The notes beneath the pieces are model-generated. The model had not been told where the DNA came from, searched no databases, and worked only from the letters and a program-made list of their open reading frames with translations. Source: Actinomycetota bacterium (lineage in GTDB: Bacteria; Actinomycetota; Acidimicrobiia; IMCC26256; PALSA-610). Taken from it: 55,994 nt of DNA. The translations under genes were made by a program, and so were the position numbers. This document shows positions 37,952 to 38,069 of this stretch, in pieces. The number at the start of each line of letters is the position of its first letter. The stretch's first letter is position 1. The stretch is taken from positions 1 through 55,994 of the forward strand of contig SXIR01000061.1 of the NCBI GenBank assembly GCA_005772765.1, in the 5' to 3' direction.

Positions 37952-38069
37952 CGGCCCCGGCGGGGGGATTGCCGGGGCCGACTTGGCTCTTTCGATTTTC
38001 CGGCCGACAAGGGGGGTTGTTCGGCCGGTCGCGGCCTGCGACGCCTTCGGGGGGACCGGGCGTCGGGCC
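37952..38069 (-). ncRNA. 6C-like small RNA candidate: three consecutive hairpins each with a CCCCCC loop
   Basis: Minus strand hairpins: GGCC-CGACGCC[CGGTCCCCCCGAA]GGCGTCG-(CA)-GGCC (38069-38033); CCGGCCGA-ACAA[CCCCCC]TTG-TCGGCCGG (38028-38000); CGGCCCCGGC[AATCCCCCC]GCCGGGGCCG (37980-37952). Two or more C6-loop hairpins define the actinobacterial 6C RNA. Confidence 0.65.

What the first reader, a model, noticed from the sequence alone, without database searches (positions are those of the whole stretch)
37952..38069. Three consecutive C6-loop hairpins: an expanded 6C-type sRNA candidate
On the minus strand between the 44-aa ORF and ybaK there are three back-to-back stem-loops, each presenting CCCCCC in the loop: 38069-38033, 38028-38000 and 37980-37952. 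The middle one has an exact six-C loop closed by CAA/TTG. The last has a perfect 10-bp stem. The actinobacterial 6C RNA family is defined by two hairpins with at least six C's each. This locus fits that definition and adds a possible third hairpin. In hairpin 3, two of the C's could also pair internally (CGG/CCG), so it may be an accessory element.
Basis: partly seen in the sequence, partly recalled or inferred. Interest (0 to 1): 0.85.

Follow-up and report, generated by a model that had tools for sequence, protein, structure and literature searches.

The report
Switch gene with C6-loop RNA hairpins
In an order of mostly uncultivated actinobacteria, one regulator protein appears to switch on a tiny gene that encodes a 40-50-residue protein and ends in RNA hairpins showing runs of six C's, which probably silence other genes by sticking to the G-rich sites where ribosomes bind; no curated family in the libraries searched describes it.

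Summary
The three C6-loop hairpins are real and far beyond chance. In 322 kb of this genome only eight C6 runs sit in such hairpins, and these are three of them. They are not a free-standing 6C RNA. They form the 3' end of a gene that starts at a MerR-type promoter (38312-38281), encodes a 44-aa protein (38219-38085) and ends in the hairpins. The unit is conserved across an order of Acidimicrobiia: 42 of 46 homologous small ORFs have C>=5-loop hairpins within 200 nt downstream, against 3.7% of control windows. Stems covary, a MerR gene is divergent at 41 of 46 loci, and the full promoter/operator occurs once per genome, always here (18 of 18). The Rfam 6C model misses the window and stays below cut-off across the class, although it finds true 6C RNAs elsewhere in the phylum. 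The third hairpin is supported: the only congener carrying the locus keeps all three C6 loops with rebuilt stems. Best reading: a MerR-switched dual-function transcript, small protein plus C-loop antisense RNA. It works like 6C/B11 and is laid out like the alphaproteobacterial CIN1 locus, but passes neither family's membership test. Transcription and targets are untested.

The parts
38281..38312 (-). MerR-type promoter/operator: -35 TTGACA (38312-38307), 20-nt spacer with dyad CTTGAGAGTA..TACTGTCAA, -10 TACTGT (38286-38281); transcription start inferred near 38274
   Evidence: Promoter scored at 28 of 46 homologous loci and in 0 of 1418 control windows. Pattern TTGACA-N10-TGAGAGT-N3-TACT occurs once per genome in 18 of 41 genomes, always at this locus.
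38228..38235 (-). Shine-Dalgarno AAAGGAGG, 8 nt before the ATG
   Evidence: Sequence
38085..38219 (-). 44-aa small protein MNALSWLAKQLAWEQRLTELRIERHTPTLAAAKRNAVTATAKAA, stop TGA 38087-38085
   Evidence: Homologs in 44 of 58 genomes of the order; at least 706 homologous protein clusters, the 120 listed without any Pfam domain; no Pfam or NCBIfam match. Codon position 3 more variable than 1 and 2 (1.23 vs 0.78, 0.69 bits). All 120 best homologs end in -xAA.
38031..38072 (-). C6-loop hairpin 1 (inner CGG/CCG can pair, leaving UCCCC in the loop)
   Evidence: Folds; position kept in G002 with a different stem and a C6 loop
38000..38028 (-). C6-loop hairpin 2, exact CCCCCC loop
   Evidence: Folds; G002 CCGGCCGAACCCCCCGTCGGCCGG
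37952..37980 (-). C6-loop hairpin 3, terminal terminator-like hairpin, 10-bp stem
   Evidence: Terminal hairpin covaries across 17 loci: 99.4% of cells paired, 7 of 10 pairs changed on both sides
37940..37951 (-). CGCG(T/C)-type tail after the terminal hairpin (CGTCGCGTCCCG)
   Evidence: CGCG(T/C) in the 14-nt stretch scanned after the strongest hairpin at 21 of 33 loci; about 5% after other hairpins of this genome
38416..39147 (+). Divergent MerR-family regulator, 243 aa, presumed regulator of the unit
   Evidence: PF13411 MerR_1 6.9e-29; divergent neighbour at 41 of 46 loci; one copy per genome, presence tracks the small ORF

Best explanation
The locus is a MerR-switched dual-function transcript. 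A divergently encoded MerR regulator binds the dyad inside the 20-bp spacer of the promoter at 38312-38281 and turns on transcription of the minus strand. The mRNA is translated into a small helical protein with an invariant -AA C-terminus. Its 3' part folds into tandem hairpins that expose CCCCCC loops, the last also marking the transcript end. The loops, in the intact mRNA or in a processed 3' sRNA, pair with G-rich ribosome-binding sites of other mRNAs and repress them, as shown for mycobacterial 6C/B11. Shown here by sequence comparison: the unit, its promoter, its conservation, the hairpins and the covariation of the terminal one. Inferred: transcription, MerR control, processing, pairing with targets, and any role of the small protein in RNA handling.
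For: Small ORF conserved across the order. C>=5-loop hairpin downstream at 42 of 46 loci vs 3.7% of control windows; 0 of 46 with a G5 loop on the same strand; dinucleotide shuffles mean 8.8, maximum 15. Terminal stem covariation 99.4% paired, 39 double-changed cells, slid controls 22-54% paired. MerR divergent at 41 of 46 loci, a single ortholog per genome in almost all. Unique promoter/operator once per genome with the 19/20-bp spacer and internal palindrome typical of MerR promoters (PMC1526738). Genome G014 keeps MerR, promoter and a C7 hairpin without a recognisable ORF, so the RNA can persist alone. Either C-rich loop of B11 represses a target with a G6 tract in its 5' UTR, shown with compensatory mutations (PMC10470900).
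Against: No transcript data. No target identified: among 218 long ORFs sampled in this genome only one had G6 before its start, so the target set may be small or pair through shorter G-runs. The number of C-loop hairpins varies from 1 to 3 and the terminal loop is often not C-rich. 12 of 58 genomes of the order lack both MerR and ORF. Only one locus lacks the ORF, so the evidence for RNA function without protein rests on a single case.
Confidence: 0.6

Rival explanations
1. The small protein is the only product that matters; the hairpins are a 3' stabiliser and terminator between convergent genes, and the C-loops are incidental.
For: The terminal hairpin is terminator-like and covaries even where its loop is not C-rich; an OB-fold gene is convergent just downstream at 29 loci.
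Against: Internal hairpins keep C>=5 loops while stems change; C-loops sit on one strand only (0 of 46 G5 loops on the same strand); ordinary hairpins of this genome lack C6 loops; G014 keeps a C7 hairpin without the ORF.
Confidence: 0.2
2. The C-rich loops are protein-binding sites (for the small protein itself, a cold-shock protein, or Rho) rather than antisense seeds.
For: In the Rhodobacter CIN1 locus the co-transcribed small protein CcaF1 binds RNA and helps mature the sRNAs (PMC10253847). The window protein is basic (pI 10.9).
Against: The family as a whole is only weakly basic (mean net charge +1), has no DUF1127 or other Pfam match, and its model has no PDB fold match.
Confidence: 0.13
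3. A true, diverged member of the 6C RNA family by descent, picked up behind a small ORF in this order.
For: Same plan of internal C6 hairpin plus terminator hairpin with a C-rich loop; the 6C model scores 36.4 bits at one relative's element (L044) and 31.6 at another.
Against: Every match in the class is below the 47-bit cut-off and the window gives none. The best 6C loci elsewhere in the phylum scored 43-89 bits, and a phylum sample of 199 genomes gave the small ORF in only one non-class genome.
Confidence: 0.12
4. A cis-acting leader or attenuator of the downstream ybaK (Cys-tRNA(Pro) deacylase) gene.
For: In the window ybaK starts 26 nt after hairpin 3; it also follows in G006.
Against: ybaK follows in only 2 of 46 loci; elsewhere the next gene is usually convergent.
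Confidence: 0.02

Closest known systems
6C RNA (Rfam RF01066; mycobacterial B11)
   Same: Tandem hairpins with about six C's in the loop, the last serving as terminator; in an actinobacterium; expected to pair with G-rich ribosome-binding sites
   Different: Rfam 6C model below cut-off throughout the class; part of a small-protein mRNA; MerR promoter with a single copy in the genome; one to three C-loops
CIN1 locus: CcaF1 (DUF1127 protein) with CcsR/cuckoo sRNAs, Alphaproteobacteria
   Same: Small-protein gene co-transcribed with downstream tandem sRNA hairpins (PMC10253847)
   Different: Protein unrelated by Pfam (no DUF1127); different phylum; MerR-type instead of RpoH-type promoter; CCCCCC loops
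Alphaproteobacterial sRNA ar7 (RF02342)
   Same: C-rich loops; weak covariance-model match at hairpins 2-3 (21 bits, E 0.053)
   Different: Gathering score is 60; a true 6C RNA (L129) also scores 23.7 bits, so the match reflects shared C-loop shape

Membership tests
6C RNA (RF01066) | Two hairpins each presenting at least six C's | tested here: met
   Three such hairpins
6C RNA (RF01066) | Scores above the Rfam gathering threshold (47 bits) | tested here: not met
   No match in window at E <= 10; none over cut-off in 119 class genomes; positive control: 6 of 150 phylum genomes over cut-off, up to 89.5 bits
6C RNA (RF01066) | Free-standing sRNA of about 100 nt, not attached to an ORF | tested here: not met
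   Conserved ORF directly upstream at 46 AA-ending loci, 42 with C-loop hairpins, though transcript ends are unknown
6C RNA (RF01066) | Represses targets through C-loop pairing with G-rich sites | not testable with these tools
   Established for B11 (PMC10470900); needs experiments here
CIN1 / CcaF1-CcsR | Small protein with DUF1127 domain | tested here: not met
   No Pfam match at E <= 1
CIN1 / CcaF1-CcsR | Small ORF followed by tandem C-rich sRNA hairpins in one transcript | tested here: inconclusive
   Arrangement present; co-transcription inferred only
ar7 (RF02342) | Rfam gathering score of 60 bits | tested here: not met
   21 bits
MerR-type promoter | 19-20-bp spacer with internal dyad next to a divergent merR gene | tested here: met
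   20-bp spacer at 27 of the 28 loci scored, 0 of 1418 controls; divergent MerR

The most novel reading that the evidence does not exclude
A self-contained regulatory module that arose independently of 6C: a MerR protein with one operator in the genome, a dedicated small protein and a C-loop RNA, the small protein acting as partner or chaperone of the RNA. It would be a parallel invention in Actinomycetota of the small-protein-plus-C-loop-sRNA plan known from alphaproteobacterial CIN1 loci.
Probability: 0.35. Interest if true: 0.8.

Novelty: new variant of a known kind. Interest (0 to 1): 0.62.

Why it matters
It exposes an order-wide riboregulator and small-protein family that the libraries searched here (Rfam, Pfam, NCBIfam) do not hold. 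It shows that C-loop antisense RNAs recur with different wiring, here under a regulator that seems to have a single target in the genome. If the mechanism holds, MerR signal input in these bacteria reaches the rest of the genome through one RNA, and the pairing of a small protein with a C-loop sRNA would have arisen at least twice, making its function comparable across phyla.

Tried and rejected
Rfam scans of the window, of 20 loci and with relaxed thresholds: no curated family reaches its cut-off at the element. A ybaK leader was rejected by synteny. Chance was rejected. A first operator pattern had the spacing one base short and found nothing useful; the corrected one is. Alignment A6 contained one placeholder row that is not a genomic sequence and was not used. 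MAFFT alignments of whole elements are out of register in the internal hairpins, so the formal covariation count was made on the terminal hairpin alone; no covariance model was built. The first codon-entropy run used a wrong motif and covered 7 sequences; one search is the valid one. The arm-swap test is biased because hairpins were chosen for pairing. A general CGCGT tail after hairpins in this genome was tested and not found (5 of 94 against 3% expected). The search for G6 tracts at start codons gave one ORF and is not informative.

Full report
What is in the sequence. Each folds on its own and the region folds better than all 200 dinucleotide shuffles (z -4.07). The window has only seven C6 runs on both strands, three of them here. 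In 322 kb of the genome eight C6 runs lie in hairpins with stems of at least 6 bp, these three being the only cluster. One correction: the C's able to pair internally belong to the first hairpin, not the last.

What surrounds it. Reading along the minus strand: a promoter (TTGACA, 20-nt spacer, TACTGT; 38312-38281), AAAGGAGG, a 44-aa ORF (38219-38085), the three hairpins, then ybaK. A MerR-family gene is divergent at 38416-39147 (PF13411), with an amidohydrolase and a ChsH2-type OB-fold gene nearby.

The unit is conserved. The 44-aa protein has homologs in 44 of 58 genomes of the order, none in the remaining genomes of a class sample of 198, and two weak matches in one non-class genome of a phylum sample of 199. 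Records found by name are mostly Acidimicrobiia or Actinomycetota MAGs (one is labelled Bifidobacterium breve, probably a naming error). At least 706 protein clusters match; the 120 listed carry no Pfam domain and no informative name. Neither Pfam nor NCBIfam knows it. Coding is supported by codon-position variation, by varied synonymous codons in the last two alanines, and by the invariant C-terminus: all 120 best homologs end in AA. AlphaFold gives an N-terminal helix with good confidence and a weak C-terminal part (mean pLDDT 76.5), with no PDB match.

The hairpins travel with the ORF. Among 46 distinct AA-ending homologs, 42 have a hairpin with a C>=5 loop within 200 nt downstream, against 85 of 2322 control windows from the same loci. 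Dinucleotide-shuffled elements give 8.8 +/- 2.4 (maximum 15), and G5 loops on the same strand 0 of 46. 27 loci have one such hairpin, 13 two and 2 three. The two with three are the window genome and G002 of the same genus; a third congener, G001, lacks the locus. Between window and G002 the stems of hairpins 1 and 3 are rewritten on both sides while every C6 loop is kept. For the terminal hairpin, aligned over 17 loci, 99.4% of cells pair, 7 of 10 pairs change on both sides, and slid controls fall to 22-54%. The other three pairs never vary, so they say nothing either way.

The control region. The promoter was scored at 28 of 46 loci and in none of 1418 control windows. A 20-bp spacer with an internal dyad next to a divergent merR gene is the textbook MerR arrangement (PMC1526738). 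The pattern TTGACA-N10-TGAGAGT-N3-TACT occurs in 18 of 41 genomes, once in each, and by coordinates all 18 sites lie at this locus. The MerR gene is divergent at 41 of 46 loci. At E <= 1e-30 there is one copy per genome, apart from G036 and G046 with two, and its presence tracks the ORF: 41 genomes have both and 12 neither. Of the five discordant, G015 does have a diverged ORF with C6 and C7 hairpins and G043 has a partial MerR at a contig edge. G014 keeps MerR, promoter and a C7 hairpin but no recognisable ORF, a single natural case of RNA without protein.

Is it 6C? The Rfam 6C model gives nothing in the window at E <= 10 and nothing over its 47-bit cut-off in 119 class genomes. In the phylum it finds true 6C RNAs (6 of 150 genomes over cut-off, best 89.5 bits). 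Sub-threshold matches fall on this element in some relatives: L044 at 36.4 bits, G045 at 31.6 and G008 at 26.3. So it has the 6C build but fails the family's sequence-structure test, and it differs by its ORF and promoter. The other close parallel is the alphaproteobacterial CIN1 locus, where the DUF1127 protein CcaF1 is co-transcribed with CcsR sRNAs and helps mature them (PMC10253847). The small protein here does not match DUF1127.

Mechanism. Either C-rich loop of B11 represses a target with a G6 tract in its 5' UTR, proved by compensatory mutation (PMC10470900). By analogy the loops here most likely block G-rich ribosome-binding sites in trans, with MerR as the switch. Shown: anatomy, conservation, covariation of the terminal stem, promoter uniqueness. 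Inferred: transcription, MerR activation, processing, pairing, targets and the role of the protein. The main rival, that hairpins merely stabilise and terminate the small-protein mRNA, does not explain the strand-specific C-loops retained while stems change.

Limits. No expression data were available, most genomes are MAGs, and the target search was uninformative.

Noticed in passing
window 38085-38093; P0001-P0120: All 120 best homologs of the small protein end in -xAA (KAA 58, QAA 52, RAA 6), reminiscent of the SsrA-type C-terminal degron; a short-lived protein would fit.
   Followed up: partly
L090 (G012:C359), L099 (G032:C298), L100 (G050:C2), L102 (G045:C105): Paralogous small ORFs with the same W..QL.WE core but mostly no C-loop hairpins directly precede what looks, from the frames read, like ABC-transporter genes behind a similar -35/-10 dyad in several relatives.
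   Followed up: no
window 37940-37951 and 20 homologous loci: The strongest hairpin after the small ORF is followed by CGCG(T/C) at 21 of 33 loci although other hairpins of this genome are not; possibly a termination or processing signal replacing the U-tract.
   Followed up: partly
L079 (G031:C12), L081 (G040:C305): C6-loop hairpin plus terminator-like hairpin downstream of a repetitive helical-protein gene and ahead of what looks like cofD; weak 6C matches (30.6 and 29.3 bits) in a different context.
   Followed up: no
L156 (G014:C39:88900-89900): Locus with MerR gene, promoter and a C7-loop hairpin in which the small ORF is not recognisable.
   Followed up: partly
L129, L133 (true 6C loci, same phylum): Matches to the Ms1 RNA family lie about 1.1-1.2 kb from the canonical 6C RNA in both loci (in L133 below Ms1's own cut-off).
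   Followed up: no
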